Positions 2,273 to 63,607 of a DNA stretch of 64,000 nt are shown here, piece after piece; within the stretch, counting starts at the first letter, position 1; every line of letters starts with the position of its first letter. This DNA comes from Marvania coccoides (lineage: Eukaryota; Chlorophyta; Trebouxiophyceae; Chlorellales; Chlorellaceae). The position numbers were made by a program, and so were the translations under genes. The notes under the pieces were generated by a model. That model did not search any database and was not told the origin of the DNA. It was given only the letters and a program-made list of their open reading frames with translations. The DNA lies in assembly GCA_963854735.1 (NCBI GenBank), contig OY978105.1, positions 496,001 to 560,000 of the forward strand, given 5' to 3'.

Positions 2273-4482
2273 TCAGCGCTGATGTATTCTCTCTTGCCGC
2301 ATGGGCGTCCCCATCTCCATGCTCCCCAAAATTTGCTCCTCGTCAGGCACAGCCGCTTCGTCCCCCTCTGCGGCACTCTCTTCCTCCACTACTGGCGGCG
2401 CCCACCCCCCCACCTCCCGCATTTTCTTCACCGAAGGACCCTGCAGAACAGAAATGTCAACGCTGATGCCCCCCTCTCTCACCCGCTCCTCCGCCTCCTC
2501 TTCCTCAGCGCGCGCAGCTTCCTGCAGCAGCCTCTCCACCTCTTTATTTATCCTGGGCAGCCGCTTTGGCAGCCGCTTTGCGAAGCCTCGCTCCTTCAAC
2601 CGCTCTTCGGTGGTGGCGAGGTGCTGGCGGTAAGCCTCGCACAGCACGCGCAGAACGCCTGGGTGGTGGTTGGCCAGCCGTTGCAGCGGCCGGCTGTTGA
2701 ACTCCCAAAGCGTGCAGCTCGTCACAGCGTGCACTGCATTAAATTTTATAAAAAAATAAAGAGGGCGCTGAAGAAATTTCGATTTATTGAGTTAAACAGG
2801 CTGAAAAATGGCCTTGCCTGTGTGCATGTGCTCCCTGCAATCTTCAATCCAGGCCGAAAAGACGGCTTCCTGGCCCAGCATTGCTGGAGCATGCACAGAG
2901 CCCACAACGTGCATGCCACGGGACTGCCGCACCTCTCCCTCCTGCAAACCACCCGTGTTTTGGATTTTATGAGAACAAAAATTGCATATAGCACCAAAAC
3001 GTATAGTTCATTTTTTGTGGAGCGGAGAATTTTCTTTACCTGCAGCACCCAAAACCTGTCTGCGCACTCCCACTCATCATACAGGACGTGGCCGGCCATG
3101 AGCCGCATGGGCTGCGCCTGCTGCGCGAGGTACGCATGCACCTCTGGACTCAGCGTGCGCAGCATGTGACTGCCCTGTATCGCCTCCCCTGCCAGCTTCC
3201 CCACGATGCGCCCCCGCAGCGCGACGGGCAGCTCGGAGAAGTATTGGGCATCGTGGAGGCCGCCGCCGTGAGGCGCCCACAGCTCAGAGTAGTAGCGCCT
3301 CACGCTGTGCTGCAGCGCCGGTGGGATGTGGCGCTCCTGGAAAAAATACGTAAATAAAATATATAATAATTAAATCATATAATATTTAATAACTTATACG
3401 ATGTGATACTACGATTTGAGTGATCTTTTGTCTCGAAAAGGTTGTGTAAAATTTGACTGATAATATAAACAAACTCGCCTTCATCCACATCTCCACCTCT
3501 TCCAGTTTCTTCTGGAGCTGCGCCGCGCTGTGCGCCGAGGAGCTGATCATCCCCAACAGCGTGCCCACCACCGTGACGACGTATCCAAAGTAAAACAAGC
3601 TCACCAGCATGTAAAGCGCTGCCACCGCCATCTCCGCGATTGTTGCAGGGGTGATGTCGCCGAAGCCGACGGTGGTGATCACGGTGACAGCAAAGTACAC
3701 TGAGGCCACCCAGCGCGCTGGGTTGTGCGTGTTCAGCAGGTCCACAGGCAGCGCTGGACATTTTAACAATGAACAATGGACATTGAAAGTTTTTGGCAAT
3801 TGGTGCTTTGTGGGATTTTCAAAGCAGGGAAACACTCTGAAAAAGTATATATATTTATTTCACCTGAATGCACCACCCATGAGTTTTCTAGGCCCTCCAG
3901 CTCCGCCAAGAACCACCACATGCACCCCATCACATTGATGATCACTGCTAGCACGAAAATGATGTTCATCAGGTAGAAAGTGGCGGTGTTGACTCGGCGA
4001 AAAATTGCGCGCGAGCTGGGGGTGGACAGCAGCGCCACCCCCCACGCGCCACGCATCATGCGTGCCACGCGCAGCAGGCGCAGCAGACGGAAGAGGTACA
4101 GCGTCTTGTAGCCGGCGCCTGACATGCCGGAGACCGTTGAGGAAATCAGCTCGGGAATTATGGCGGCGACTGCGCATTTAAAATCAAATTTCGTGTGGAA
4201 TGGAAATCAATTGACGTTTCGAATCATATGGCGAGGGTGCAAAATTGAATTTCCAATATTTGAATTTGGTCTGAACAGTATCGAGAGAATCAAATTAGAA
4301 TTGTAAGAGATTTGGGAGGGGTGTTGAAATCGTCTTACTTGCGAGAGCATCTATCACGAAGCTTCCTTTCAGGTACCGCGCCGCAACGTCGACGCCACGC
4401 AACACCACCAGCCTGTGGACGTCGTACTTGACGATGAACCCAACGTGGAACTGAACAATCATGTCGGCCAGGAAGAAGCTGG
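2273..4482 (-). CDS. Voltage-gated, cyclic-nucleotide-domain K+ channel, 5' end unresolved
   Basis: Exons (descending): 4482-4339, 4169-3864, 3753-3479, 3336-3040, 2941-2818, 2733-2273, about 534 aa. In order they encode S2 and S3 (Ala-Asp-Met-Ile-Val-Gln; Phe-Val-Ile-Asp-Ala-Leu), an Arg-rich S4 (Leu-Phe-Arg-Leu-Leu-Arg-Leu-Leu-Arg), S5, a pore helix with the K+ filter Thr-Val-Gly-Phe-Gly-Asp, S6, a C-linker and a cyclic-nucleotide-binding fold ending in Cys-Thr-Leu-Trp. The acidic tail has no ankyrin repeats. This is the plant KAT/AKT or HCN/EAG architecture. Introns 3478-3337 and 2817-2734 have GC donors; only these keep the frame. No exon for S1 or the N terminus is visible: a plus-strand gene begins at 4623. 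The frame stays open to an ATG at 4624, but that stretch looks like intron. Confidence 0.85.
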
Positions 4483-4622
4483 CTGCAAATAAAAATAAAA
4501 GAATAACGGGGGAGGGTGGTATTAAGCTTCCCCTTGGCTTCTTCAGCCGCCACGCGCACGCTGGAAATGCGATCGAAATGTCTACAATTTCATTTCTAAA
4601 TTTAGTATTACTATTTGCAACC

Positions 4623-6796: not shown

Positions 6797-7017
6797 CTAG
6801 TAATAATTTATTTTTAAGCGCCATGATTTTTTCCCTCCGAAACCTGCAATTCACAATTGCATTGCGGTTGAAAAAAATATTAAACGAATTACACAGACCC
6901 TTGGAAAGCCTTGTCTCGGATTTAGCTCTTCAATACTATTTTTGAAATCAATTCTCGATCGCTTGCCAATTCTTTTTGCCCGAAATCTCAACTGAACAGT
7001 CGCCAAAGCAGCATCAA

Positions 7018-8696
7018 ATGGGCATATCGCTCTCTTCGCAAGAGGCACCGCCCTCGGTGGTGCTGGTCCCCCCGCTGATCGACTCGAGGGAGCGGGGACG
7101 AAGCCGCTTTGCCAAGAGCTCCTACGACAGGCAAGGCTACCAACTCCCTTAAAATCCAACCATATATAGTCATCATCCCAATCACACATTTAATACCATC
7201 ATTTTCCGTATATTAATCGAGTATTTCTCAATGCAGAGCATTTGGCCAGCCGGTGCTCAGAATTCTCTTCAACGATTTTCTCCCACTAGACACCCGCGGC
7301 GCGTTGCGCTTCACGCCCCCCGAGGACCGCCGCATCAGCGTGGCAGCCAAGCTGCGCGTCCCGCAGCAGCTCCTCCGCCTTCCTTCGTTCTCCTCTCATG
7401 GTAGGGATTATTACCCTCCTGCTGCTGCAGCTCCAGCTTCCGCTGGCCCTGAAGGAAAGATGACGCTGCGGTACCAGCCCGACCCCGACGTGCCCTGGAC
7501 CTTCTGCGACGTAAAAGCGCGCGCTGGCGCCTCGGGCAGCTCCGCCACGGTGCGAGGCTGCTTCATCAGCCCTTCAACTAATCTCGGCGGCTTCGCAATC
7601 TTTCCGTTGGGCGTTTCAGCCTCCGGGGCGCCTTCTCAGCCGCAGCTCGGCGTGCGATACTCCCACCCGTCGTTCTCCGCGGGGGCAGCGGTGCAGGCCA
7701 CCCCTCCCACGCTCGCTTCAGCCTGGTTGGTGGGGCGCGCCGGCGGCTTCGTTTTTGGGGTGAAATCTGAGCCAGGGGCGGTGTTAGGAGGCGAAAAGCT
7801 GGGCGTGGGAGCAAGTTTGAGGCAGTTGGGGGACGCATGCATGCTGGAGCCGTCCTGGGGGGTGGCGTATCGGCCTGAGGGGCAGTCTGCGTACGGCAAA
7901 GGGGTGTTCACAGCGTCGGTGGAGCTGAGGCGGCGCAAGAAGCTGGCGGTGACGTTCCTGCACCACATGGCGGTGCAGCGTGTCGTGCACAACCCCCTGG
8001 AGAAGTCTGGTGAGAGGTGCTGTTGCGATTTGCCGTTGATTAATCATTTCCGAAACAGTTGGACAAAAAAAAAATGATTTGTTTTATTTTATTTTTTCCA
8101 CAGATGTAGTGGGGATCACGAACTACCTGGACCTGGCTTTTCAAATGGTCACCGACCTCAGCGGCCAGCAGGGCGACGGCAGCGCTGCTGCAGCAGCAGA
8201 CAGCATGCGCCTCGCCGCCGCCTGGCAAGCCAACAAAAACGTCATGGTGCGTTCATACTTTCTACCTTTTTCTTTCTTACTGAACCCCAAATTCACCTAA
8301 AATTCCGTTTTTTTTTTTCCGTCTCATCAACCCCCCTCACTATTGAACCCTGTTTAGGTAAAAGCGAGGTTGGGCCTCGACGGTGCCTCCATTGGCGCCA
8401 TTTTCAAGAGTTGGTGGCAGCCTGCCTTCACCCTGGGCGTCGCCGCCACCAAGCCCTTCACGGGGGGGGGCCCACGGCTGGGCGTCACTTTTTCCGTGGA
8501 ATCAGATCGCAATTTGCGGTATGAGCGGGTGTCTGAGGGCCAATTGATGTCTGGCGCGCGCGTGACGCAGCGCCACGTGGCGTCTAGCGAGGATGTGGCG
8601 TACAGCGAGGGACGGGGGTTGTTTGTGCCGCTGTCTGAGGTAGATAACCCGGAAGTGCTGGGACAGCGACCGGCGCAGGGCGACAATTTTTTGTGA
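7018..8696 (+). CDS. Predicted beta-barrel, outer-envelope-pore-like protein
   Basis: Exons 7018-7130, 7237-8009, 8104-8246 and 8358-8696 give 455 aa. The first intron has a GC donor (GACAG|GCAAGG); only this joins Tyr-Asp-Arg to Ala-Phe-Gly in frame. The protein is made of many short alternating hydrophobic/polar stretches with Gly and aromatic residues at strand ends (for example Val-Lys-Ala-Arg-Leu-Gly-Leu and Phe-Thr-Leu-Gly-Val-Ala), with no long hydrophobic helix. That is the look of a membrane beta-barrel such as the chloroplast OEP proteins. The family call rests on pattern, not on a firm motif; OEP37-like, OEP40-like and other organelle barrels are all open. Confidence 0.55.
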
Positions 8697-16164: not shown

Positions 16165-16928
16165 ATGTTGAGAAGAGCCGTGCGTGATTGCCTGAGGGCC
16201 TCATGCGCCGCTCAAGTGGGCCTGCACTCTGGCGAGATCGCTTCCTTCCAATCTTTGCTACGCTGGCCTGGCTGGGCGGTGGAGACCCCGCAGACAACGC
16301 CAGCACAGCAACGGTCATTCCAAGCGCTCGCCCAGAACCGCAGCGCAGCAGCAGCACCTCCACAGCTTAGAGCTCGCCACGCCAGCGGTGAAACTGCAGC
16401 AGAAAAATACGACCTCCTGGCACCCGACACAGGCATTATACGCATCGATGGGCAAGTGATTTTGCACCCCTCTTCATGATTTTGCACCCCTCCAGTAAAC
16501 CATTGTTTGTTTGTTTAATTTTGAAAACTGTCCACCGTCTATCGTTTTGTCCTAACAAAACGCCTTGCTCTCATCCTGTTACCAGGTATGACGGCACGGG
16601 GTTCATCGTGGGCGACGTTCAGGTGGAGGGTCCCATCATTTGCTTCGGCGACCTGTGGCTGCAGTGGTCCCCCTCCTCTTTCAACGCCGTCACCATTGAA
16701 ACCCTGTCATTACTCGACCTGGTGAAGCCTATCCCAGACCTAGTGGTACTGGGGTGCGGGGCGCGCATTCGGCAGGTGCCTGTGGCGCTGATGGAGGGGC
16801 TCCGGGCGCGGGGAGTGGCGGTGGAAGCGCTGGATACCGCCAACGCTGTTTCCTATTTCAACATTCTGAATCAGGAGGGCAGAAAGGTGGTGGGGGCCTT
16901 GATACCTGCCGGGATTGACGATGAATGA
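16165..16928 (+). CDS. NDUFAF3-like (DUF498/Mth938) complex I assembly factor
   Basis: Exons 16165-16451 and 16586-16928 give 209 aa. The intron has a GC donor (GATGG|GCAAGT); a GT alternative five bases on breaks the frame. NDUFAF3 is a mitochondrial matrix factor needed for assembly of respiratory complex I. The domain begins Ile-Arg-Ile-Asp-Gly-Tyr-Asp-Gly-Thr-Gly-Phe, matching the family's glycine-rich opening, and contains Pro-Asp-Leu-Val-Val-Leu-Gly-Cys-Gly and the terminal helix-strand Asn-Ala-Val-Ser-Tyr-Phe-Asn. The first 75 residues are Arg/Ala/Gln-rich with hardly any acids, a good mitochondrial presequence. Confidence 0.8.
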
Positions 16929-19819: not shown

Positions 19820-20016
19820 ACTGTGGGCGGCGGAGCGGTCACCGGCGTAGTGGCAGTATCCGTACGTCCACCGTACCGGGGGTCGATCCCAGCGGATGGA
19901 AGGGGGTACCCGCCTTACTGTGGCGGGAAGTGGCACGTCGCCTTGCAGGTCTCTATAAGAGCACCTTCTGTAGGAGACGTAACAACCAGATGTAAACCCA
20001 TTAAACCCATTAAACG
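19820..20016 (+). repeat. Dispersed SINE-like repeat, copy 1
   Basis: Related to 41441-41609 and 55950-56132. It shares the TATCCGTACG core, a GTCGATCCC block that resembles a tRNA-type pol III B box, GGAAGGGGGTAC, a CCGCC/GGCGG hairpin with a TTACTGT loop, and an ACGTnACAACCA block before a short tandem tail (here AAACCCATT repeats). This is the most diverged copy and abuts the LINE remnant. Autonomous coding capacity is absent. Confidence 0.65.
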
Positions 20017-21160: not shown

Positions 21161-22408
21161 TTATGTATGTATGTATGTATGTACTGCGGGAGCGGGGACC
21201 TCTGTGGCAGATGTGTGAGGGACAGGAGCATAGGTCGCCAGGGGAGGGCGTGGCAGCCCCGCCGGGGCGTGGCAGCTCTGATTGGTGGCGGCAGTAGCGG
21301 CAACCACCGACGGCGCTGTTGTTGTTGCTGGAGCCATCATGTAACCGCTGGGCAGCGGCGGCAGCGGCGGCAGCGGCGGCATGGACGTCCCTCCTGTATC
21401 CATGACAGCAGCAGCGTTGCTGCTGACGCCAAACCCCAGCCGCGTTTGCTTTTGAGGACTGCCCCCGCCCCCGCCTCCCATTGCCGCCGCTTTCTTCTCG
21501 CGTTGACTCTCAACATCCGCCGTCATTCTCCTCCTCCGCTTCGCCGGCGAACCCCCCTTCCGCGGCTGCCCTGCTGTGCCCTCTGCTGCACCCCCCACCG
21601 CCCGCTTCTTTCTCTTTCTCTTTCTCTTTCTCTTCGGGGGATGGGCGGCCAGAAACCATTCCGCTGCCTGCTGGGCCCCCACCGCAAACTCTGCCGGGTA
21701 GCGCTGCCGCACCGCGTCCACCACTGTCTGCCACGGCGTCTGCAGGAAGGGCAGCTGCAGCCATGTGCACATCCGCTCTTTCAGACTTTCCACCAGATGG
21801 CGACGGAGGGCTGCCACGATGAGGGCCTTTAGTTCCGAAGCCTCGGAGAGAATGGTGGGCACCTTGTCGAAGCCCTCCAGGCTGAAGTTGTGGCGCAGGA
21901 CGGTGAAGCAGAAGGAGTGGAAGGTGCCGACGGCTGCAAAATAAAATAAAAATAAAAAAAATGGCACCCTAACTCAAACCGTAAGAGGAAAAAAACGACT
22001 GCGACAACAAAGAAAAGCAACAGTCAACTCGCCAATGCGGTCTGCGCCCGGGAGACCCAGCTTCTTCAGCCGGTCGCGTGCCTCCTTGGCAGCTTTCACG
22101 GTGAATGAGATGAAGAGCAGCTTCTCTTCAGCTTCCCTGCGCTGCACGGCTGCAGCGGCGTTGGCCACCATGGCGCGCTGCGCGGCTGGTGAGGGCTGCG
22201 GGGCCGGGACGAGAGAGAGGCGGTGGGAGGCATACTCGGCGGTAATGGGTTTTGAGGGGCCAGCGTTGGCCGTTGAGGGCCTAGCACCTCCGCTCGATGG
22301 CCCAGCGCCGGGGTTTGATGCGTTTTTGGCAGAGGCACGAGAAGGATTTGTTGCATCGCGGGATGATTGGTGGGTGTTCGCTCCGGCGCCTGCCACGGGT
22401 TGGGTCAT
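21161..22408 (-). CDS. Truncated UvrD/SRS2-like helicase fragment protein, 382 aa
   Basis: Exons 22408-22033 and 21933-21161, joined by a GC-AG intron (TTG|GCGAGT) that restores Arg-Ile-Ala-Val-Gly-Thr-Phe-His-Ser-Phe-Cys. UvrD-family helicases unwind DNA in repair. Only motif Ia (Phe-Ile-Ser-Phe-Thr-Val-Lys-Ala-Ala-Lys-Glu-Ala-Arg) and the following Thr-Phe-His-Ser-Phe-Cys motif with about 70 residues of domain 1B are present. The Walker A loop that should lie about 20 residues before motif Ia is missing, as are motifs II-VI. The C terminus is a Lys/Arg-rich stretch plus disordered Pro/Ala/Thr-rich sequence ending in a translated ACAT repeat. No helicase activity is expected; it may be a pseudogene or a repurposed DNA-binding protein. 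Confidence 0.65.
21163..21182. repeat. GTAT/ACAT tandem repeat
   Basis: About five tetranucleotide units that supply the last codons and stop region of the UvrD-like gene, at its border with the LINE remnant. Confidence 0.8.
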
Positions 22409-24521: not shown

Positions 24522-26216
24522 ATGGGCGACGACGGGTCTCTGGGTGCTAGTGGGCCCGATGATGGCACGCAATCATCTCAAGGAGCGCAAGCTCACGATG
24601 CCGCTGCCACGCCCACGGCATCAATCAGCGTAGTTATGCTGACATCCAGCGCTGGCGAGGCGGGCCAGGTGGCTGTAGCGCAGGAGGAGCCAGCTGCAGC
24701 GGCCAACTCCGGCGACAGCGGGAACAGCCCCGGCCAGAAGAAGAACGGCGCTGCTGCCAAAGGGAGCAGCAGCAACGCCCCGGTGGAGGTGCCTGAGGAG
24801 CTGCGGGCTGCGATCGTGCGCCAGGTTGAGTTTTATTTTGGCGATGCCAACCTGCCCACCGACGACTTCCTCATGAAGTTGGTGAAGAAGAACGCAGAGG
24901 GATGGGGTGAGTTTTCTTTCCTTAACTATTTATTTACTGCCTAGTGTCAATAATAAAACAGCGCCGTTTATCAGTTTCAATCAAACATATCAAGCTCAAC
25001 TAAGAATTTCTTACTTTTCTACGAATCCACATTGCAGTCCCCATCCGCGCCATTGCCGACTTCCACAAAATGAAGAAGCTCTCGCGCTCCTTTCCCGCCA
25101 TCGTCGCCGCTCTGCGCACCTCCACAGAGCTGGAGATTTCTCCAAACTGCAAACTTCTCCGCCGAATTGCCCCGCTGCCTGAGCTCGATCTGGACGACAC
25201 CCGCGCCCGCACGGTCATTGCCTGGAACCTCCCGGACAAGCCCAAGATCGAGCAGGTCATCGAGACCTTCAGCGCTGCTGGGGCGGTGTCCATGGCCAGA
25301 ATAAGGACGCAGGCAGGTTTTATTTATTTATTTATCGCTGGGGTTTTGTGCCTTTTTTATTCTAGTCTAGTATTCATGGAGTGATTATTGTATTAAAATA
25401 TCTGCAGCAGTCTCCGCATTCCGTTGGACCGTGGAGAAACTAGGGCAGTAATAATAAAATATACTCTCGTCTCGGTAATCCATGATTTTTCTTTCGTTTA
25501 TTTTGTTATAATTGCAGGACCACCCGGAGCCGCTGCTGACCAAGGGACTGAAAACTGCAGTGAAGCGGTGCGGGCGGCCGAGCTACGCGCTGGTTGAGTA
25601 CGCCACGGTGGAGGAAGCGGACCGAGCGGTGAAACTACTCAACGATGAAAGCAACTGGAGGAGCGGGCTGAAGGTGCTGCCGCTGCTGCAACGGCCGCCG
25701 CCGCAACCTTTCGCTGGTGGAGACGGTTCTGCTGCTGGAGGGGGTGCAAGAGGAGGAGCGGCAGCGGCAGCAGCAAAGGAGAAGAAGCAGGGGCGGGTGA
25801 GTGGCAGGGCAGCTGCTGCGGGGACAGCAGAAAACAGCGGAGTAAGGGGGGACGGCGTGGCTTCCCCACCCCCGGCGGAGCGGCCTGTGCCGTCGTGGGC
25901 TCAGCAGAAGCGGAAGAGCAAAGGAGAGTACGCTGCATGGGCCAGCGCTGCCGCTGCCGGTGCTGCTGGAAAGGGAGGAGAGAAGGGCGGTGCTGGGGGA
26001 GAGAGCGGCGGCGGGGAGGGAGGAGCGGGAGATGGCAAGGGAGCAGGAGAGCAGGCGAATATCAATGCGGCAGGTGGCGGCGGCGATATTCCTGGGAAGC
26101 CTCGCATGCCGGATGGGACGCGGGGGTTCGGCATGGGACGGGGGAAGCCGCCCGTCTTGTCCCCGGGAAACAAACCGCAGCAGAGCCCTGGGGCTGGCGC
26201 TGCTCTTGACACTTGA
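24522..26216 (+). CDS. LARP6: La-related protein, LARP6-type
   Basis: Exons 24522-24906, 25038-25312 and 25518-26216 give 452 aa. The second intron has a GC donor (CGCAG|GCAGGT); the nearby GT shifts the frame out of the RRM. LARP6 proteins bind mRNA through a La motif and RRM and control its translation or localisation. Order here: Ala/Gly/Ser-rich N terminus; La motif from about residue 90 (Val-Glu-Phe-Tyr-Phe-Gly-Asp-Ala-Asn-Leu-Pro, then Leu-Ser-Arg-Ser-Phe-Pro-Ala-Ile); an RRM (Thr-Val-Ile-Ala-Trp-Asn-Leu-Pro, then Tyr-Ala-Leu-Val-Glu-Tyr); a long Gly/Ala linker; and a SUZ-C type motif (Pro-Arg-Met-Pro-Asp-Gly-Thr-Arg-Gly-Phe) near the C terminus, as in LARP6. Confidence 0.85.
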
Positions 26217-31091: not shown

Positions 31092-33065
31092 TTAAATTTC
31101 TTCGGGGATTTCAGCAACAGCATCATCGCCAACCTTTTCAAGCTCTTTAATCGACTTTCCTCCCACCCCTCTCCTATCGCCGAGCTCCAATCCCGCTGCC
31201 TCCGCCACCGCCGCACTGCCATGCCGCTGCAGCGCGTGCCGCAGATCGTGCCGCCCTGCCGCCCTCAGCTCCTCATGCGTCGGCATCTCCAACCCCCTCC
31301 CCCTCTCCCCTCCTCCATTCCCTTTATTATTGAAACTGTCATGAACTCTGCCGCTGCAGCTGTTGCTGCGCTTTGCCTCAGCCACAGCAAACGCGGCGAC
31401 CTCCCGGGCGGCCCATTCCAGGTCCTGCCAGGCCCCGCGTTTGAGACGCTGGGTTTTCCACCGCAGGCGGCGCGCCAATTCCACGTAACCGCCGTGCTTG
31501 ACCACCGCCTGGTGAAGGTCTGAGCGTCCCAGGTCGAGGAGCTCATTGGCGGTGGGCATGCGCTGCCGTGGGAGGCCGTGCTCGGAGGCGAACTCGCGGA
31601 GCTCGGCTGCCAGGGTGCGGATCTTGCGCAGGTGCTGCGAGCCAAAACGAAGTACAAGTTGAGTGAAAAGGACAGGAGGGGATGATTATCAGAGGTTCAT
31701 GGAGCAAATCCTTAGGAAAGGTTGTATAATAGAATCAGACAGCGTAATAAAATGAAAAAAAATCTACGCTTTATCACGCTAAAAAAATGCGTCCATCTCA
31801 ATCAAACTCACCCTGGTAGGAGGCCACGCGGGCCACCTGTCCAGCTCCTCCGCCACCTGCACGTACCCCCCTGCCGCCACTATCGCAGCGTGCAGGTCAT
31901 ACCGCCCTGCCGCCAACAGCGCCGACCGCGACGGCATCGCGCGGTCGTCCTCACTCTCCGTCAGAATCACGCTGCCCTCGTCGTCCAACGGCACCACCTG
32001 GGGCTCCACAGGTGCCTCCCACCTCACCCGCCTTGTCACCGGATTATACCAGTACGTTTCGCCTTGTACTGCCGTCCCTGTCGGCGCGCTTTCTTCCTCG
32101 CTCTCGGAGCTGGATGAGTCCGACCCCGCGTCCCTCTCCGAGCTGTCAAATCGCGCCCAGTTGGCCGCCACAAACAGCGACAGCTCCCGGTCCAGCGCTT
32201 CTTCATCCTGCCAGTACCCCGGGGGGCGGCGCGCGGACCGCAAGCCCAGCTCTTGCGCCACCTCCACGAACCCTCCCGCCGCCACAATCAGGCGCACAAG
32301 GTCCTTCCGCCCCGCTGCCTCCAGCTCCCGGCGCTTCGGCATGGTAGGCACGCCAGAGGGGGACAGCGATGCCAGAGGCGCCACCTCCGTGCGCAGGTGC
32401 TGCAGCAGCGCTTGGCGGCGGCCCAGGTCCAGCAGGCCTTCCGGGGGGTCGACTGTAATTTTTCTGTTAGCGGTGTCGATGTGAGGAACGATGCTGCGCA
32501 CCAGAGGGATCAAGTGCTGCACCTCTAGGTGGGGGACGTCAGTGGGTGGGGTGGTGCTGCTGCTGCCGCGGCGAGGGGGCAGCACGAGCTCGGCTGCCAC
32601 GACTTTCAGCAAACCGTGGGGCGCTCTCGTGTAGGAAGAGGTCAACACCTATAAACGTAATTTCCATCGTTATTGAAGCGATATTGGGACATTTAATTGC
32701 CTTCAATAATAACATTTTACGTGAAATTTTGGGTTAAAACAACGCATATATATTCATTAAAAACTTGCCTCTTTCACCACGCCCAACACAGTTTCTCCTC
32801 CTTTCTCGCTACTTTGCTTCTCATTGGCCATCATCACGACGGTGTAGCCTTTCAAGTCTTTGGCGGTGGGTTGCGGCGAGGCCGGCGCTGCGGGGGCAGG
32901 CTGCTGCTCTTTTGGAGAGGGCGGCGGGCGAATAGGATTCCGCCATGGCACGGAGCTGGAGCGCGCCCGGTGCGTTCTTGTGCGTGGATGAGGGGCATAT
33001 GAGACGCTGAGGAGTCTAAATAGGGTGATGGGTGGTAGCGAGGGCCGGCTAATTGTGAGGTTCAT
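31092..33065 (-). CDS. RIMM: Plastid-type RimM ribosome maturation factor with plant repeats
   Basis: Exons 33065-32769, 32648-31812 and 31634-31092 give 558 aa. Intron 1 has a GC donor (GAG|GCAAGT). RimM helps process the 3' domain of small-subunit rRNA. Visible: an Arg/Pro/Ser-rich transit-like start; a RimM beta-barrel ending in Leu-Ile-Pro-Leu-Val-Arg-Ser-Ile-Val-Pro and Ile-Thr-Val-Asp-Pro-Pro-Glu-Gly-Leu-Leu, the family's clearest signature; then four copies of an about 35-residue helical unit (Met-Pro-x-x-x-Glu-Leu-x-x-Ala-Gly-Arg-x-Asp-Leu-x-x-x-Ile-Val-x-x-Gly-Gly), two of which flank a half-WW-like segment (Tyr-Trp-Tyr-Asn-Pro-Val-Thr). Plant plastid RimM proteins carry similar repeats. 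The repeats may bind RNA, which is inference. Confidence 0.8.
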
Positions 33066-33371: not shown

Positions 33372-34468
33372 ATGGAGTGTCGCTCAATGCTCCAAGCCAG
33401 CAGCATGCAGCTCAGGATCCAGCCATTTATGGCCACGCAGCGGCAGCCTCGTGGCGGCAGTGCAGTGCACGCCAGGCTAGGGCTTCCCAACATCCCAACT
33501 TGCTCCCTCAGCTGCTTCCCTCCATCCCTCCGCACCGACCTCGCCAAGCAGCATACCCCCACGTACGTCAAACCAAAGCTCAGCTATCGCGGCTTTGCCA
33601 CAGGTACCTAAAACCACCCTTTTTCACCAATGTTCCCTTTTGATTTTCGCGCCCACCAGCTCACTCTCCTCCTTTCTCTTCCACAGCTGCCCTTCTGGGC
33701 GAGGGCATTTCCACCGCCAAGCCTGAGCTCATGGCAGACACCAACTCCCCCTCCTCCCTCCCCCCGCCCGCGATTTCAAAGTCCGACGCCGCTTTCACCT
33801 CCGACGGGGTTGAATTCGTGTGGGGAACCGAGGGACTGGACTGCGGGGAGCTGAACGACCTGTTCTCGCGGGTTGGTTTCCCTCGCCGCGACCCCATCCG
33901 GCTGGCTGCTGCGCTTTCAAACACGTATTCTACAATCTGGATCCGGGCCGCTCGAAAGAGCAGAATGGCAAAGGAAGGGCAGCTGCTGGGGTTTGCGCGG
34001 GCCACAAGTGACGGCGCGTTGAGCGCCACGATCTGGGATGTGGCGGTTCACCCTGCGTGGCAGCGAATCGGGCTGGGGAGGGGGCTGGTGGAACGATTGA
34101 CAGCGGACCTTGTGAAGCAAGGAAAGTTTCATTAATTGTACCACTTTTTCGCATCTGTTTGGCTTGTTTCAGTGCTAGCGTAATGAATTTGTTTTCAAGC
34201 TGTTATTTTTCTGTATTTACGTCAAAATATTAGTAGAAATTGGGGGTTGAAACATGCTTTGATTATCCTTGCCGTTTTCTTCGTTTACTTTGCAGGCATT
34301 GCTACTATTACGTTATACGCCGAGCCAGGGGTGGTGGGGCTGTATGAGAAGCTGGGGTTCGTTAAGGATCCGCAGGGGGTGAAGGGCCTTGCCTTTCAAA
34401 CCACCTCAAAGAAAGCAAGGGAGTTGATGAAGGGGCCGCCAACTCCCCGACCACCGGTGAAGGCTTAA
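33372..34468 (+). CDS. Plastid-type GNAT acetyltransferase, NSI/GNAT-like
   Basis: Exons 33372-33603, 33687-34121 and 34296-34468 give 279 aa. GNAT enzymes move acetyl from acetyl-CoA to an amine of a protein or small molecule; plant plastid members do both Lys and N-terminal acetylation. The acetyl-CoA loop is in Gln-Arg-Ile-Gly-Leu-Gly-Arg-Gly-Leu-Val, preceded by Trp-Asp-Val-Ala-Val-His-Pro, and exon 3 holds Tyr-Ala-Glu-Pro-Gly-Val-Val-Gly-Leu-Tyr-Glu-Lys-Leu-Gly-Phe, typical of the plastid clade. The first 110 residues look like a transit peptide plus spacer. Intron 2 appears to be GA-AG (CAAG|GAAAGT to TGCAG|GC). A GT donor four bases on would need another acceptor and insert about 20 hydrophobic residues into the fold. 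Confidence 0.8.
34122..34295 (+). other. Probable GA-AG intron
   Basis: The donor reads AG|GAAAGT where the consensus is AG|GTAAGT; the acceptor is TTTGCAG. Only this junction joins Lys-Gln-Gly to Ile-Ala-Thr-Ile-Thr-Leu-Tyr in the frame expected of GNAT proteins without an insertion. Confidence 0.55.
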
Positions 34469-38714: not shown

Positions 38715-41034
38715 TTAAACGTTCACATGCCCAGCAGTCTTTCTAGCCACCCCTGGTGGAGATACGGAGGCCTTTGCCAGACCACAGCAGCTCCCTCCCG
38801 AGCCCCTCCACCGGCGCCCTCGTTTGGCCCACCCCAGCTGCCCCACAGCTGCCACGCCCACCACCAGCCCCGCTAAAGAAAGTAAGCCCCAGCGAGGCTC
38901 GGGGGCAGCCGAAGACGACTCTTCCTGGAGCACCAAAATGGCGGTGTTGCTGTCACCTGCATCGCCGTTTTGAACGCCTTTTTTATTTCTTTTTTCTTCT
39001 GCGGTGGTGAGTGAGCTCTCGGGCCGGCCGCCGCCGGTCGTTGCCGCCATCGCCTTGAGCACTTCTGCAGCAACAAAAACAAAGAAACAAATGAGATTTG
39101 TATCAGAAATATAAAATATGTCCTCAAAGTGCTGCTTTTCATGAAATCCAGCTGGCAGGAAGGACTAAACGAAAAGATGGTCAGAACAAGCGCAATTTTC
39201 CATCCATCCATCCATCCATCCATCCATCCATCCATCCATCCATCCATCCATCCATCCATCCATCCATCCATCCATCCATTACATATAAAGAGAAGAAAGA
39301 AAAGGGTAGGTCTTACTGACCTTCGTTCGGAACACCGCCGATGACGCGCACGGTCATAAACTCCTCCCCCAACGCATCAGTGGTCGACTGCGAGTAGTTA
39401 TACGCTGAAAACACGATGAGCTCTTCCTGCTTGGCTGTGTAGGGTGAAAGCCCAGGGGCGTACACGCTGTGCAGCTTGGTGCCGCTGCCAAGTCCGCCAG
39501 CTGAGGGCACGTGGGTCATGCAGACCGCGTCCACCACAGCGATTCTGTCTCGGGGGTAGTGCAGCAGCGCTGGCCAGATGGAATCCAATCCCCATCCCAC
39601 GTAAGTCCAATACCTGATGAATTGACAAGGCAATACAAAGCAAGGTTAATCGAGAAAGACGGACACCTCCGGCTGGAGATGGTTTCGGTTGGGTGCCCCC
39701 CCCCCCGCCCCCCCCCCCAACCCCCCCGGGAGATATTATTCGATGCACACCTTGAGAAGGTCCTTCTGACGACTTTGTCGAAGAAGTCCATGCGGAAGGT
39801 GGGCGCCATAACTTCGACAAAGGTGCTGTACCGCAAGATGTATTGCGGGCGCTGATGCAGCTCCGGGCGCCAGGTGGCGGACCCAGGAGCCTCGCACACC
39901 GCGGGCTGGGCCAGCAGCAGGTCGTAGGCGCGCATGAGAGAGAAGACAGTGTTGATGGCGCAGGTGTCCTGAAAAATTAATAATATTGATAGGACGTGAA
40001 ATGACGTCATAAAATATGCACCTGGGTGTAAATAAAATAAGATAGTAATTTTTGGAGGCAAAATGTAGAGGAAATGCAGCGAAAATTGCAGTAAAAGCAT
40101 TCGATTCTTGCCATTTCCAAGTCATCGTCTGGCAGCATCACAAAGTCGTAGCGCTCAGACAGGCCGTCCCACTGCGGCGAGGACGCGAGATCAAAGTAGC
40201 TGCACCAGGGAGAAGGAAAAAACAGTGGTCAAAGGTGCCATCCAAAGAAAAAATGCGTGACATGCAGAATATTTCTTTTCGGAAACTCACAGCCGCCACT
40301 TGGGGCCCTTGATTGGGATGACGGCGATGCACTGCACGCAGGAAAATTTTCCAGTGTCTCCGTGGTAGAGGGCCACGATGTCAAAGGTGGACTCTTCAGG
40401 ACGACTCAGCCACCTGCAGCCAGCGGGAAAATAAATTAAACTAGATTTTCCTGGTTTTTCTTTGCAAAGCTGACAATCCGGAAATGTTTTAATTTTAATT
40501 TTAATTTTAATTTTAGCGCACTTGTCTGGCTGCCAGGAGTCGCCAGCAGGGACGATGAGGAGGTTTCTGCGTGGCTGTCCAGCAGCAGCAGCTGGTCTGC
40601 CGCAAACGAGCACAGGCGGCTGTCGAGGTTGAACTGATGCTCGGGAGCTGCCACTTGGGACCCAATAGCCGTCTGTAGACGCGTTGTCGGTGGCTGGAGG
40701 CTGGGAAACGTCGCTGTTCCTCGCGCCTGTTTTATAATAATCGCGGAGCCAAGCAACAGAATCCTCGAAGGGAGGGTACAGAAGACCGGATGGGTCTGAA
40801 ACGAGGCTTCGGCCTTGGCCAGTTTGGAGAGCGAGCACTTGTTGCTGAAGACCCAGTTTTTCGGCAACGGCACCTGAATTTCGGTCGAATGCAACCTTGT
40901 CAGCCTTGAGGGCGTATATTTAACTTAATGAGATATTAAGTGGCTGTCACAGGGCCGCGCTCACCTCTGCACGCCGCGAAAGCGAGCAGCACCACGTACA
41001 AAGTAATCATCGGGAAAAAATTCGAGGGATGCAT
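38715..41034 (-). CDS. DUF707-family protein, seven exons, 497 aa
   Basis: Exons 41034-40965, 40873-40522, 40413-40291, 40199-40112, 39968-39751, 39613-39321 and 39064-38715. Intron 4 has a GC donor (ATG|GCAAGA). The first exon is a hydrophobic signal anchor. The body matches plant DUF707: [29 protein letters not shown] (an Asp-rich motif like those of nucleotide-sugar glycosyltransferases), Leu-Leu-Ala-Gln-Pro-Ala, Tyr-Val-Gly-Trp-Gly-Leu-Asp, and His-Val-Pro-Ser-Ala-Gly-Gly. A second membrane segment ([10 protein letters not shown]) lies near the C terminus. A Golgi or secretory-pathway glycosyltransferase role is plausible but unproven. Intron 6 holds a 20-copy CATC array. Confidence 0.8.
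39200..39279 (+). repeat. CATC tetranucleotide minisatellite, 20 copies
   Basis: Perfect (CATC)n array of about 80 bases inside intron 6 of the DUF707 gene. Confidence 0.95.
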
Positions 41035-50069: not shown

Positions 50070-50892
50070 ATGGCCAGCTCCTTGGGCTCTGGCGACCTCA
50101 CTGTCAACCACTCATCTCTCCTCAGCTCCACCTTTGGCGCTCTGCTGCACACCGCTGCCTTCCCCTGGCACCTCAGCCTGCAGTGGTGCGCTTGGTTGGC
50201 ATCCCTGGGGCTCAACACGCTGCGCTCCCTGGGCGCTCCTCCCCCGCCAGGCTACATCGAGGCCTCAAAGCTGCGAGAATTGACGGCTATAAACCACCAC
50301 ATGCACACCCGAGAAGACGTCTACCGCCGCGCCATCCGGGAGCTGCAGGAGGAGCTCGACTCCAAAGACTCCGACCGCAAGAAAGCGCTGCGAAAATTGC
50401 GGTCCACGCGTGACGAAATTGCGGGGCTGAACACCCGCCTGGCGCAGCTGCAGGAAGCCTACTGCCGCTCTGAAAACGGCGGGGATCGGGCACAGTTCGC
50501 GGAAGGGGGCGAATTTCGATCGCAGACGGGGAGGGACAGCGCTGCGGCGGTGGTGCATGCTACGGCGGCAGCGGTGCTGGCGGCTGTGTGGTGGTTTTGC
50601 AAGTTGGAGCACGCGAGCTTGCACTGGAAGCTCGTATTTACACTATTTTTTCCGGTGAGTGCGGCGTGATTTCGGTATAATTTTTGTTTGGAGTCGTCTG
50701 AAACAAGCCTCTTTTTGTGACAACGGTAATTTTTTGTGGTTTCTTTTGCAGCTTGTATGGCTGTACGTGTCCTGGATAGCCAGCCCCAGGCGAGGGCAGA
50801 TGCCGCTGACGATGCTCATCCCCTGCTGGTTCCTCATCGGCTTCACAATCGCGCTGTCAGTGGGGGAGAGCTACCAGCCTACATCGCCTTGA
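50070..50892 (+). CDS. Coiled-coil protein with C-terminal membrane helices, 241 aa
   Basis: Exons 50070-50654 and 50752-50892 (GT-AG, phase 0). Residues about 25-55 form an aromatic-rich hydrophobic stretch. Residues 72-135 are a strongly charged coiled coil (Ala-Ile-Arg-Glu-Leu-Gln-Glu-Glu-Leu). The C terminus has three hydrophobic segments (near 165-185, 190-208 and 215-235). I do not recognise the family. The layout is reminiscent of tail-region membrane tethers, but it lacks the N-terminal basic helix expected of a GET2 subunit. Confidence 0.65.
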
Positions 50893-51519: not shown

Positions 51520-54500
51520 TCACCGTCGTGTCTGCTCAGAGTGGGTAGCGCTGATATTGTTGACACGGTTCATCGTCAGAGGCGCGTTTTGGGCGAGAGG
51601 AGTAGCATCACCCGCGGGCGGTGCCGCCGCCTGAGCCGCCCTCAGCGCAGGAACAGAGAAATCAGAGGAGCGTGGCAGCGATGGGCCCATCAAGGAGTTA
51701 AAAGACCCGAAAACTATTCCGTCCATCGCGTTTCCGTCGCCCCCACCAGCAGCACCGCCAACGCCAGCAGTCGGCTGCATTTGCTCTGCAGAAGCGAATC
51801 TTCCTGAGAGCGCTGCAGCAGAAGTGGCGCTGAGTGTGAGGGCGGGAGCTGCGGAGAACGGCTGGCTGATGGGAATGTTTAAAGGGAGATGGGACAGCTG
51901 CTGGTGCTGCTGGATTTCCTTTTGTTGTGTCTGCCCCCGCTGAGGGGTCTCTGCTTGGACTGTGCCATGATGAAATGCCAGAGGCAGCGGCGCAGCGCTC
52001 GTGAAGGCATCCGTAGATGCAGGTGGGGGAGGAGCAAGAGCTGCAGGAGCCACTGTAGCAGTCCCTTGAGGCAGGAGAATTTGAATTGCGGGCAGAGGCG
52101 CGGTCACATTCGCAGGCACAGCATTATGCATCGTGATGGGCATCACAGCAGGCTGCTGCATGGTGCAAACAGCTGCCACAGTCGGTTGTGGGTTAACTGT
52201 CAGCAGCGTGAGATGTTCATGCTGCGCATGCTGCGCTGCCATTGGTTGCATGCCCAGCAGAGGGTAGCCGGTGTGCACAGACGCGGAGACTACTGGTGCC
52301 CCAGGCACCGCCCCGACATTCAAGGTTTGCGGCTGCATCGGCGACCGTGGCGGCAGCAGCGCCGCTGCGCCCGCTGCCAGCTCCTGCAGAGCCTCCAGGT
52401 CGGGCCTCAGCTGCGACTGAATGCGCTGAAAAATGGATTCCTCACCCCCGCTGGCTGCTGCAGCTGCAAAAGTCCCCTCTGCCGCAGCGGGCGCACCGTT
52501 TTGAATGCCGCCGCCGCCCCTGGAGGCTGGAAAATGCATGGGAACCGCGGCAGGTATGTTCCCCACCAAATTGGACGCATTTCTGTCGCAGTTGGCGGTC
52601 TGAATGATGATGCCCGCGCCTTCTAGAGTTGCAACAGCGGCCATGGCCGCAGCCGCAGCTTCGGTGGCTCTTGGCAGCTCCTGCGCGCGCCGCGGCGGCG
52701 GTTGAGCCATGTTGGGTTGTGCCTGCAGGGGCACTACGCCTTGCAGCACCGCCATCGTGTTTACCGCGGCCTGGGCTGCCGAGAAAGAAATTTGTCGGGA
52801 GGCAAAATTTTGAGCAGGCAGCGGATGCTGAGGTGGACGGGGGGCCACCGGCGGGCGGCTCACGCTCCAAGGAACAGATACAGCACCCGCGTGAGGAGCA
52901 AGCGGAAGGCTAGGCGGCTGCAGCTGAGGCTGTGCATTAGGTCCGCTGTTGCCGTTCAGATCGAAATATACGGCGCTCTGCTGCTGGAAGAGGGGCGGGG
53001 GAGGCTGCTGCGCGGCATGTGGGGCGACCGTGCGCATCTGGGGTCCTACATGAAAAAAGACTGGCTGCGGTTTCGGCTGCGACGGGGGCGGCAGCGGCGG
53101 CGGCGGCGGCGAGAGCTGCCTTAATGCATAGCCCGACTCATCCAGCAATTCTCGCAGCTCCGCAGCGACGCTGTCGTGTGTGTCCATGGGCACCGCCTCC
53201 AGCCGTTCTTCCTGCGCTCCCGTCGCGCCGCCAGCAGCCTCCCCCAGCAGCACCTGCTGATTCTTGATGGGGCGCAGCGTGGGAAAATCACGCACAGCAG
53301 GCGCATCAGGTGCGCGCTCTTCCATGTGCGCGTCTTCCGCAGCGAGCACCGCAGCTGTGGCGGCGGCGGAGGCCACAGCAGCGCGGCGGGTGACTCTGGC
53401 TCCTGCAATGCCGGTCGGTGGAGATTTGAGGTCTGAGGATTGGCGTCGGGAGGCCGAGCGGGGGTTTCTGCTCCTCCACTCAGCGTACACCGCCTTGCCG
53501 GCTTCGCTTAGGTTGATGTAGGGCTGCTGCTGCTCCTTGGGGAGAGCATTCCACTTCTGCAGGAGGAATTACCAAGACGAAGTTATTAGAATTAATTACA
53601 AAGGAGATAATATGGCATATGGGGGTTCGATTGAGCTTTACCTGGGCAGCGAGCTTACTGATCTTGCTAGCAGCCAGCTTGGGCTCGTCGAGCCGCTGCG
53701 GGATGGAGAAAAAGAAAGAACGAGTGGGAAGAAATGAAATGACGGCAATACATTCATGGAATTTCTCGCCTTGCGCTCCTCCTTGAAGTCCTCCAGGTAG
53801 TAGAGAAAAGGCCTGCAGGAAAGTTGGCGGCAGCACGATTCTTATTATAGGCCAATACATGCAAATCAATACACATTGGTGTTTTGCGTCATTTCATTAG
53901 TGCAGCAATACATTCGAGGGTCGTATTGGGGTATTGCTGTCAACCGAATTGACGAGAGAGCGCCTCTCTTGCAATTAATCTGGACACCGCAAATATACAA
54001 CAAAATGCTCAGCAAACGAGCCGCTCACCCTCTTCCTTTGGGCGGCGGCGCGTCAGACTCTGCCTCAGCGCCCGAGCCGTCCTCTCCCTTCGCTCTTTCC
54101 CGCGATTCCTGCATGCGCGCGCTCTCCGCTGCGTGCCGCTCCTGCGGAACACAATTAATAACGCACGTGCATCATATCAATACACGTGTCTAATTAAAAA
54201 TAAACGTTCATCGAATAAATAGAGCAAATTTATTAGGTAGAATGTTAACTACCTGCGCCTCTCTGCTCATGTGCTGGTAGCGTTCCCGCTGCTCCTCAGC
54301 CAGCTGCACCCACGCGCGCCGCCCAGCCTCTTCTGCCTCCTCCAGGCTGGATCCCACTGCTTTCTCTTGGTCGGGCAGCACCGCCGCAGCCTTGCCCATG
54401 CGATACTCGTCCAAGAAGAACCAGAAGGCAGCTGTAGAAAAAGTTAAATAAAATTCAATTAAATGGGGGCAAGTACGTAATTAAAATATAACAATTGACA

Positions 54501-61176: not shown

Positions 61177-63607
61177 TTACGGCTTGTCGCCGCCACAGCC
61201 GCAGCCGGACCTAGTGGGCAGGCTGCCGGCGTACGGCATCATGGGTACCTGCCCACGGTCAACGACGCGGGGGCCAGTGAGGACGTCCTCTGCCTTAGGC
61301 CTGATGTCAACGTCGAAGATGCCCAGGGGCACTGCGATGGTGCAGCAGGCGCTGCAGAGGGGGGGGGGGGGGGGGGTGGTGGCAAGGCAGGATTAGAAAA
61401 TGCTGGGTTGAAGAGGAGGGAGAAGAAAAAATAACAGACTCTTACTTTGGCACGTCGACGATACCGGAAACGCGGCCCTCGCTGCAAGGAAAGAAATTTT
61501 ATTATAGGGAAATTCGGTGAGAAATGAAAGGGAAAGAAAATTATAAAACTCCAGCTGTCACATATTGCCCTTTTCTTGTACCAACAGACTATCATTTGCT
61601 CCGCTGCCACCCCATGCCCTGATGCCCAGCGCAAAACCTATAGTTATCAACACTCACCAGGGGCAGCAGGACAGCAGCATGTAGACCTGCTCCTTGGTCA
61701 GCCCCGTGTGGGAGGAGATGTAGTTGATGGCGTTCAGGGAGGCGCGCTTGTAGGCGATGGACGCATCCAAAAAGTGCTGCTTGCCGTCCTCGTCGATGCT
61801 AAGCCCCTCGAACACCAGCCACTCGGAGTACCAGCGGGAGCCGTCCAGCGGGGAGATCTCGAAGATGGGGTTGACGTTGAGGGGGGAGGGGCCCACCGGG
61901 GTCAAGTGCTTCATGCCGCCTCGCATAATCTCGGCCTTCATGGTGATGAAGCCCGCCATTTCGATGGCGCCGCAGAAGGAAATCTCGCCATCGCCCTGAG
62001 AAAAGTGCAGGTCGCCCACGGAGAGGTTTGCGCCCTCGACAAACACCGGGAAGTACACCTTGGAGCCGCGGCTGCAATAATAAATAAGAGAAGAACACAC
62101 TTGCCAATATCAGTTATTGAATTGGGATGGATGGAATGAGTGGAAGGCGTGAATGAATTTGCGTATAACTGGTTTTTAGTTATATATCGATAGTTGAAAG
62201 CTCAGATAGTAGTAGCACTAGGGGGAAACGAGATTTAAACAAAACAAAAAATACTTTTTCCATATACTTGCGTTAAGTTTTTGACGTCGCAGTTTCCGCC
62301 GTTCTCTCGGCCAGGGATGGTGCGTGCAGCCTCCGCCGCGTACGTCGCGAACTTGGGGTCGTCCTTGGACATGCCCCCCAGCAGGCAGTTGGTGGGATTG
62401 GGCAGGCAGGCCAGCGGGCGAGCGTGGAGGTGCTTCATCAGCGGGTGACCCTCCTCCTGCAGCGCAGACTCGCGCGTATTCCACATGTCCAGCAACTCCT
62501 GGGAGGGCGCGGTGCCGATGAGCCCAGGGTGGATCAGTCCTGCATGAAAGCAGATAATGAAGGGTCACTGCTCGGCTTAAATTTTTACGTATACACAAAT
62601 TTCACCGTTCTCTAGCTATCGGGGAATCTAGCGGGGCAGTTCCAAGGCTGCTGCAGTTAAGTGAGTATAGCAGTACTGGCGCTCTCACCTGGGAAGCGGA
62701 CGCCGGGGATGTGGCGGGAGGTGGCCCAGATGCCCTCGAAGTCCCAAATGGCCTTGCAGGCGTTCGGGAAGTGGTCGGTCAGGAAGCCACCGCCGTTCTC
62801 TCGGTCAAATATACCCGTAAATCCCCAGTTTTGGCCTGAAAAAAAATGCAGGAATGGGTGTCAGAGCGAGGTGGCTGCGAACAGGCAGCAACAGGGTCGC
62901 CAAAATGAACCAAAAACACGTAATTTGAGGCGAAATTTACAGCAGAAATGCACACGCCGCATGCATTAGTACAGGTGCACCATTATGCAAAATACGCGGC
63001 TTAGGCTGTCAATGATTTCGCCTCAAGCGAGATGTTATTTGAATTAGAAGGAGAGTTTACTCTCCCCACAACCCAACCTACCCGGAACGGTTCCAATGTC
63101 GAGGATGTCAACCACCAGCAGGTCTCCGGGATGGGCAGGCACGCCGTCCTTGTCGCTAAAAAAAAAAGGTCCGGAGAGGAAATGAGGCGCCGACAGGTCA
63201 ACATTCAACATGTCCTCCGCCGAGTCGTTGTTAACAATCTGTGGTGTAGAGGATGAAGGAAACGGAGAGTGATTTGTTTTGCTCATCTAATAGCTTATAT
63301 ACAACTTTAATTGTTCGCAATTCTCAATGAAAATATGTATAGCTTGCCTGGCCACCCGTCCACTCCATGCAGTGGACTTTGAACTGCTCCCCAGTCTCAA
63401 GTTTGGCTGCCGGGGGAATCTCTGCGTCCAATCAACATATTTTGGGCCAGGGTAAGAATGTTTTCCCCACAGCTGTTTGGGCTATGATGAAATCCTAAAA
63501 AATGAATTAAATAGTCTACCTGGGTGCCAACGGTTGTGGCAGGGGACCTTCTGCTCCCAAGGAGCCTTGTCGAAGTCCACTTCGAAGGCGAGAATTGGGT
63601 CCGTCAT
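61177..63607 (-). CDS. Formamidase (FmdA/AmdA family), eight exons
   Basis: Exons 63607-63520, 63421-63348, 63238-63082, 62835-62689, 62539-62272, 62071-61658, 61481-61446 and 61351-61177 give 452 aa. Introns 2 and 5 have GC donors (CAG|GCAAGC and AAC|GCAAGT); only these give Trp-Thr-Gly-Gly-Gln-Ile-Val-Asn-Asn-Asp-Ser and Lys-Asn-Leu-Thr-Arg-Gly-Ser. Formamidase hydrolyses formamide to formate and ammonia. Family signatures include His-Pro-Gly-Asp-Leu-Leu-Val-Val-Asp, Phe-Ser-Gln-Gly-Asp-Gly-Glu-Ile, Leu-Leu-Ser-Cys-Cys-Pro-Cys-Glu-Gly-Arg and Asn-Ala-Cys-Cys-Thr-Ile. No targeting peptide is apparent. Exon 7 is only 36 nt. Intron 7 has an 18-base G run. Confidence 0.9.

What the first reader, a model, noticed from the sequence alone, without database searches (positions are those of the whole stretch)
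2734..63347. Very high share of GC-AG introns
Eleven of about 60 phased introns need a GC donor: 3337-3478, 2734-2817, 7131-7236, 16452-16585, 21934-22032, 25313-25517, 32649-32768, 39969-40111, 53696-53769, 63239-63347 and 62072-62271. Each GC is followed by a purine-rich consensus (mostly GCAAG or GCGAG), and at most sites no GT option keeps both frame and conserved protein motifs. About 18% compares with roughly 1% in most plants and animals, which suggests a spliceosome or U1 recognition system tolerant of C at position +2. Gene finders that allow only GT-AG would misannotate many genes.
Basis: partly seen in the sequence, partly recalled or inferred. Interest (0 to 1): 0.8.

Follow-up and report, generated by a model that had tools for sequence, protein, structure and literature searches.

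The report
Green alga with many GC-AG introns
About one intron in six in this small green-alga genome starts with GC instead of the usual GT, and these GC starts sit where the rest of the start signal is strongest, as if the cell avoids start signals that pair too well with the splicing machinery.

Summary
All 11 segments start GC and end AG on the coding strand. A gene-finder HMM blind to intron position +2, run on 243 kb from 13 contigs, gave GT 140, GC 31, GA 2, GG 1 among 174 confident introns (17.8% GC); outside the window 21 of 122. Of 10 reader introns tested against protein relatives, the GC donor beat the frame-keeping GT alternatives in 9 (in two of these not with every relative); HMG was inconclusive, LARP untested.

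GC-AG shares of 22-40% are published for two other algae, also with canonical U1: a new member of a known kind.

Possibly new: C replaces T mainly in strong donors (AG|GYAAG: C 15, T 5; AG|GYGAG: C 2, T 19). Donors with 8 or more U1 pairs number 4 of 171 against 22.8 in shuffles, and CAG|GTRAGT shows no genome-wide excess. I read this as a ceiling on donor strength; drift under GC pressure remains a serious rival. No RNA data.

The parts
2734..2817 (-). GC-AG intron, cyclic-nucleotide-gated-channel-like gene (cag|GCAAGG)
   Evidence: posterior 0.999; GC beats 27 GT alternatives narrowly, 31 vs 28
3337..3478 (-). GC-AG intron, same channel gene (aag|GCGAGT)
   Evidence: alignment to 5v4s has no gap at the junction; 93 vs 82, 48 alternatives
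7131..7236 (+). GC-AG intron, gene of an unnamed green-algal and plant protein family (OEP37-like, recalled) (cag|GCAAGG)
   Evidence: RSRFAKSSYDRAFGQ identical in Nannochloris relative P0001; GC better with 6 of 6 relatives, 367 vs 199 for P0001
16452..16585 (+). GC-AG intron, DUF498 gene (NDUFAF3-like, recalled) (tgg|GCAAGT)
   Evidence: HMM prefers GT at 16456, but the GC product, given from 3 residues before the junction, matches Pfam DUF498 from its first residue and GC scores 42 vs 26, 3 alternatives
21934..22032 (-). GC-AG intron, UvrD/PcrA-like helicase gene (ttg|GCGAGT)
   Evidence: gapless alignment to PcrA; 109 vs 96
25313..25517 (+). GC-AG intron, La-related protein gene (cag|GCAGGT)
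   Evidence: HMM posterior 0.952; junction lies next to a gap of the LARP7 alignment; alternatives test not run
32649..32768 (-). GC-AG intron, gene with a RimM-type barrel domain (gag|GCAAGT)
   Evidence: Pfam PRC_RimM spans junction; GC better with 6 of 9 relatives, closest P0083 220 vs 197; P0096 and P0117 favour a GT alternative, P0116 ties
34122..34295 (+).
   Evidence: gapless alignment to chloroplast serotonin N-acetyltransferase 7dai across the junction; 171 vs 140 against 38 GT alternatives
39969..40111 (-). GC-AG intron, DUF707 gene (atg|GCAAGA)
   Evidence: Pfam DUF707; GC better with 8 of 9 relatives, 430 vs 391 for P0048; P0072 185 vs 187
53696..53769 (-). GC-AG intron, HMG-box gene (aag|GCGAGA)
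   Evidence: HMM posterior 0.999; HMG_box match spans junction; homology test inconclusive, 27 vs 31
62072..62271 (-). GC-AG intron, formamidase gene (aac|GCAAGT)
   Evidence: gapless to formamidase 2wkn at the junction; 293 vs 271
63239..63347 (-). GC-AG intron, formamidase gene (cag|GCAAGC)
   Evidence: gapless to 2wkn at the junction; 162 vs 133

Best explanation
About 18% of introns are true U2-type GC-AG introns, removed by a spliceosome whose U1 and U6 pairing sequences are ordinary (shown at sequence level; splicing itself inferred). C at +2 costs one pair with U1 and is accepted only where the other donor positions are strong, above all +5G, -1G, +4A and +3A (shown). In addition, donors seem held in a band of 5 to 7 Watson-Crick pairs with U1: very strong donors are under-represented, and in the strong context AG|G_AAG the genome uses C rather than T at +2 (shown statistically on 171 HMM-called donors). 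The inferred mechanism is selection against donors that pair too well, probably because U1 must be displaced and the site handed to U6, so that +2C is one of several accepted breaks alongside +3G, a non-AG exon end, or a non-G at +5.
For: GC share 31 of 174, 21 of 122 outside the window; only C improves the HMM fit; protein relatives. U1 ACUUACCUG and U6 ACAGAG canonical. GC donors: +5G 31 of 31, -1G 94%, +4A 90%, +3A 84%; C share by matches at 7 other positions (A or C counted at -3): 3-4 matches 0 of 26, 5: 10 of 86, 6: 18 of 54, 7: 3 of 5; Mann-Whitney p 2e-6. Pair-number variance 0.68 against 1.54 in column shuffles, 0 of 20,000 as low; >=8 pairs 4 against 22.8; 164 of 171 donors have 5-7 pairs. 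+2/+3 coupling p 7e-7; +3A in AG|GT with +4+5=AG 5 of 24, otherwise 23 of 32, p 3e-4. AG|GYAAG C:T 15:5, AG|GYGAG 2:19. With T put at +2, GC donors would pair with U1 more stably than GT donors do (mean -9.2 against -7.5 kcal/mol, p 2e-5). Genome counts (observed / Markov expectation, orders 1-3): CAGGCAAGTWWW 79 / 29, 22, 18; CAGGTAAGTWWW 14 / 8, 10, 4; CAGGCRAGT 561 / 470, 399, 279; CAGGTRAGT 156 / 190, 247, 162, where independence of GT positions, scaled from the 140 GT introns, predicts about 553 donors.
Against: No RNA evidence. As they stand, GC donors pair more weakly with U1 than GT donors (mean -4.8 against -7.5), so they lie below, not at, the supposed ceiling in energy. CAGGTAAGTWWW is slightly above its Markov expectation, so perfect donors are rare, not absent; the CAGGCRAGT excess over the order-1 model is modest (561 against 470). 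Some couplings are positive (-3/-2, -2/+3, -1/+3, +4/+5), so the limit does not act evenly on every pair. One-mismatch neighbours of CAGGTAAGTWWW together with exact matches are not above the reversed control (573 against 691). The reversed control is itself poor: it exceeds a class that should contain donors (HGTRAGTWWW 1384 against 2879; Markov 753, 934, 681). The Markov models were trained on the 64-kb window only. Exon/intron see-saw coupling is general in eukaryotes (PMC10599564 passages, PMC11732430 sections), and I could not run the same test on another eukaryote to show that the ceiling is unusual. The lower-tail deficit may be HMM detection bias. Against the C/(C+T) of coding third positions (0.717), 15 of 20 C is unremarkable.
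Confidence: 0.6

Rival explanations
1. Neutral drift: a T to C change at +2 is nearly harmless where the rest of the donor is strong; under a GC-rich mutation or gene-conversion pressure, strong GT donors turn into GC donors, leaving GT only in weaker contexts. No ceiling and no change in machinery is needed.
For: C share rises steadily with the strength of the rest of the donor. Coding third positions have C/(C+T) 0.717, GC 0.735, and 15 of 20 C in AG|GYAAG does not differ from that. The published survey links high GC-AG share to genome GC, though it calls the correlation weak outside three species; neutral fixation in a strong context was proposed for mammals (PMC2490688, first of two parts read).
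Against: +2 is intronic, and intron bodies have C/(C+T) 0.411; 15 of 20 differs from that, p 0.003. Genome-wide 79:14 differs from 0.411 and from 0.717 (p 0.004), but these are raw counts whose chance background is itself C-rich (18-29 against 4-10), so that test overstates. Strong GT donors also avoid A at +3 (5 of 24 against 0.60 expected from intron composition, p 1e-4), which drift to C at +2 does not predict. The sampled DNA is only about 55% GC.
Confidence: 0.3
2. Altered recognition: a U1 snRNP protein, a U1 or U6 base modification, or a core spliceosome protein has changed so that C at +2 is read almost as well as T.
For: GC share far above most eukaryotes; Iwata and Gotoh suggested base modification or U1 proteins for two other algae. 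U1-C here has A11, I19, Y28 where human has T11, S19, R28; T11 and S19 touch the RNA backbone, R28 lies near it, and a human R28G K29S double mutant fails to enhance E complex (PMC4383343 passages).
Against: U1 pairing region and U6 ACAGA box are canonical. GC donors still come with strong compensation. Single alanine changes at these U1-C positions had no growth effect in yeast, and U1-C makes no base contacts (same passages); Y28 is recalled to be usual in plants. Modifications, PRP8 and LUC7 were not examined.
Confidence: 0.07
3. Artefact: wrong junctions, or sequencing errors at GT donors.
For: HMM calls alone can misplace donors; unfiltered calls include 26 GA and 18 GG of 299.
Against: GC product fits relatives best in 9 of 10 tested; CAGGCAAGTWWW is above expectation on both strands (45 and 34) while GA and GG forms are not; CAGGTRAGT occurs about at its background expectation, so the motif is not converted everywhere.
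Confidence: 0.02
4. A mobile intron (introner) family carrying GC donors has spread.
For: Recalled: Aureococcus and Micromonas pusilla, the published high-GC-AG species, have introner elements.
Against: All-against-all blastn of the 174 introns gives 55 pairs at E <= 0.01, of which 1 is GC-GC (chance share 3.1%), over 22 nt; the longest match of any pair is 59 nt. GC and GT introns have similar lengths (medians 109 and 118.5, p 0.14).
Confidence: 0.01

Closest known systems
GC-AG introns of Aureococcus anophagefferens (39.6%) and Micromonas pusilla (22.2%), Iwata and Gotoh 2011, PMC3033335 (passages and the whole Discussion read)
   Same: Very high GC-AG share with canonical U1 5' end; called an enigma by the authors
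   Different: Those genomes have 66-70% GC; the sample here is about 55%, introns about 41%. I saw nothing on donor couplings in those species, so a shared ceiling is possible
GC-AG introns of Chlorella sp. (7.7%, same paper, passage)
   Same: A green alga probably related to this one (relatedness inferred from protein hits)
   Different: Share here is about twice as high
Ordinary U2-type GC-AG introns of animals and plants (about 1%), PMC6310983 (passages), PMC2490688 (part 1 of 2)
   Same: GC donor compensated by strong consensus at other positions
   Different: Here 17-18% instead of about 1%, and GC outnumbers GT in AG|GYAAG (15 to 5)
Two 5' splice-site classes / see-saw linkage, PMC11732430 (two sections read), PMC10599564 (passages)
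   Same: GT donors split into AG|GTnnn and nn|GTRAG, anti-associated (both strong: 24 seen, 38.6 expected, p 2e-7)
   Different: Here the both-strong class is filled largely by GC donors (17 of 41), which the parts I read do not describe

Membership tests
U2-type GC-AG introns | Intron begins GC and ends AG | tested here: met
   11 of 11
U2-type GC-AG introns | Other donor positions closer to the U1-complementary consensus than in GT introns | tested here: met
   mean 5.77 against 5.09 of 7 matches, p 2e-6; +5G 31 of 31
U2-type GC-AG introns | Donor not of U12 type (ATATCC, as quoted in PMC3033335) | tested here: met
   +3 to +6 profile of the 31 GC donors is AAG[TC]; U12 branch sites and U11/U12 RNAs not searched
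U2-type GC-AG introns | Excised from mRNA at these sites | not testable with these tools
   no RNA data; protein relatives support 9 of 10 tested
High-GC-AG algal genomes (Iwata and Gotoh) | GC-AG share far above 1-2% | tested here: met
   31 of 174; 21 of 122 outside window
High-GC-AG algal genomes (Iwata and Gotoh) | Canonical U1 5' end | tested here: met
   ACUUACCUG; the two bases before it read CA instead of AU; the U1 match is 58.8 bits, below Rfam's 69.5 cut-off
High-GC-AG algal genomes (Iwata and Gotoh) | Genome GC of about 66-70% (their correlate, not a definition) | tested here: not met
   window 54.7%; sampled stretches 52-58%
Introner-derived introns | Introns share sequence with each other | tested here: not met
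   1 GC-GC pair of 55 matching pairs among 174 introns, 22 nt long; whole genome not tested

The most novel reading that the evidence does not exclude
This alga's spliceosome imposes an upper limit on donor strength: donors matching U1 perfectly are excluded and +2C is a selected way to weaken an otherwise perfect donor, so GC is the preferred form in the strongest context rather than a tolerated error.
Probability: 0.4. Interest if true: 0.75.

Novelty: new member of a known kind. Interest (0 to 1): 0.5.

Why it matters
Why some algae have many GC-AG introns was called an enigma by those who reported it. The +2/+3 coupling and the scarcity of perfect GT donors turn it into a testable question: is the machinery tolerant, or are perfect donors harmful? 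It also matters for annotation, since GT-only gene finders would be expected to misplace about one junction in six here.

Tried and rejected
Tried: 7-mer counts AGGTRAG and AGGCRAG in the window do not exceed dinucleotide shuffles (11 against 10.5; 27 against 26.7), so short motifs alone carry no signal; counts over the loci were not used. Reversed-pattern controls were found unreliable and backed by Markov expectations. A first alternatives test favoured downstream acceptors because it took a fixed length after the acceptor (RimM-like then came out 0 of 9 for GC); it was redone with a fixed end. A first strength test on the window alone was weaker (p 0.035 for 15 GC against 37 GT donors). 18S identification did not complete. 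The DEAD-family search gave places but no DNA. Paper searches on Nannochloris, LUC7 and CAGGUAAGU gave nothing that I used. That CAG|GTRAGT is common among human donors is recalled only. Introners and GT misreading were rejected as told under rivals. No structure prediction was run.
Full report
What was claimed.

The sequence. All 11 segments start GC and end AG on the coding strand. The window is C9:496001-560000 of a 22.46-Mb assembly in 15 contigs. Protein relatives point to a trebouxiophyte green alga: the best named hits are Nannochloris sp. 'desiccata' (55%, 47%), with Parachlorella, Chlorella and Picochlorum further down. This placement is inference; 18S was not searched because the service was busy.

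Unbiased count. I wrote a two-strand gene-finder HMM with codon, intron, donor and acceptor models. In the window with +2 learned it gave GT 49, GC 18, GA 5, GG 1, including short terminal introns I do not trust. Allowing C besides T at +2 raised the best-path log probability by 54, while allowing A or G instead lowered it by 13.5 and 7.1; the GT-only model, with other bases at 0.001, still kept 12 GC donors. With +2 made uninformative and 243,099 bp from 13 contigs, the unfiltered best path was GT 204, GC 51, GA 26, GG 18. Of 287 donors with posterior >=0.5: GT 202, GC 48, GA 21, GG 16. After filtering to posterior >=0.95, >=30 nt coding on both sides and <=400 nt, 174 remained: GT 140, GC 31, GA 2, GG 1. 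Outside the window: GT 100, GC 21, GG 1 of 122. The three GA or GG calls give the scale of false calls, though at least one GA is supported by homology. Of the 174, 173 end AG.

Homology. Formamidase 2wkn aligns without gaps at both of its GC junctions, channel 5v4s at 3337-3478, PcrA at 21934-22032, and the Nannochloris relative is identical around the 7131 junction. Against frame-keeping, stop-free GT..AG alternatives with ends within 120 nt, the GC donor scores best for 9 of 10 reader introns tested, though not with every relative (RimM-like 6 of 9, DUF707 8 of 9) and narrowly for the 84-nt channel intron (31 against 28); the HMG case goes the other way by 4 points; the LARP intron was not tested. 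For 16452 the HMM preferred a GT 4 bases on, but homology favours GC. One further intron, 34122-34295, needs a GA donor to match the chloroplast serotonin N-acetyltransferase 7dai.

Machinery. One U1 match (58.8 bits, below Rfam's cut-off, E 4e-13) carries ACUUACCUG. Two identical U6 copies carry ACAGAG. The U1-C zinc finger matches human U1-C over residues 1-50, with A11, I19 and Y28 where human has T, S and R. So the proposed U1 change is not seen in RNA; base modifications, PRP8 and LUC7 were not examined.

Compensation. GC donors have +5G in 31 of 31, -1G 94%, +4A 90%, +3A 84%. The C share rises from 0 of 26 donors with 3-4 other matches to 10 of 86, 18 of 54 and 3 of 5. This is the known compensation of GC donors. 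As they stand, GC donors pair with U1 less stably than GT donors (mean -4.8 against -7.5 kcal/mol); with T at +2 they would be more stable (-9.2).

Ceiling. GT donors show the known see-saw between AG exon ends and RAG at +3 to +5 (24 seen, 38.6 expected, p 2e-7); pooled with GC donors it is weaker but remains (41 seen, 54.7 expected, p 5e-6). Where both sides are strong, GC fills part of the gap: AG|GYAAG C 15, T 5; AG|GYGAG C 2, T 19. The number of Watson-Crick pairs with U1 is less variable than in any of 20,000 column shuffles; 8 or more pairs occur in 4 of 171 donors, 22.8 expected; not every pair of positions is negatively coupled. Genome-wide, CAGGCAAGTWWW occurs 79 times (Markov 18-29), CAGGTAAGTWWW 14 (4-10), the GA and GG forms 13 (21-27) and 14 (19-22); CAGGCRAGT 561 (279-470), CAGGTRAGT 156 (162-247), one of these lying in the U1 gene itself; independence would predict about 553 CAG|GTRAGT donors. 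HGTRAGTWWW, a GT class without -1G, is above its Markov expectation (1384 against 681-934), so GT donors are detectable this way, although its reversed control is higher (2879).

Origin. Introner spread is not supported: of 55 pairs of similar introns among the 174, one is GC-GC, over 22 nt.

Reading. The simplest shown result is ordinary GC-AG introns at an extraordinary rate with ordinary snRNAs. Beyond that, I favour a limit on donor strength: a donor pairing too well with U1 may be slow to be handed to U6. Drift under GC pressure is the main rival; it explains the compensation, but not why AT-rich introns prefer C there (unless the pressure is that of coding third positions), nor the avoidance of +3A in strong GT donors (5 of 24).

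Known work. Iwata and Gotoh reported 39.6% in Aureococcus, 22.2% in Micromonas pusilla, 7.7% in Chlorella and 2.7% in Micromonas RCC299, with canonical U1 in the three species they examined, and called it an enigma. My searches listed no paper whose title or abstract start describes the +2/+3 coupling or missing perfect donors in such genomes; I opened only seven papers, and most subscription papers are not in that library.

Noticed in passing
34122-34295 (+): A GA-AG intron in an N-acetyltransferase gene, well supported by homology; the GA form of the strong donor is not enriched genome-wide (13 against 21-27 expected).
   Followed up: partly
50613-50751 (+): A further candidate GC-AG intron (cac|GCGAGC) with posterior 0.995 in the window run, absent from the filtered set and without a Pfam match.
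   Followed up: no
21161-22408 (-): UvrD-like gene model matches only profile positions 33-117 of 271 and then has a long low-complexity tail; the model or gene may be incomplete.
   Followed up: no
19799-20761 (+): Open frame that looks like the end of a retroelement protein (impression from reading, no search made).
   Followed up: no
about 39200-39320 (-): Tandem repeat translating as WMDGWMDG inside or next to the DUF707 gene model.
   Followed up: no
P0002, P0003, P0004, P0006: Four relatives of the 7131 gene lack the first exon or read odd residues just where our GC intron lies, which suggests an intron at the same place missed by their gene callers.
   Followed up: no
L023, L024 (C2:1511042 and C2:1518569): Two identical U6 copies 7.5 kb apart on one strand; only one U1 match in the genome search.
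   Followed up: no
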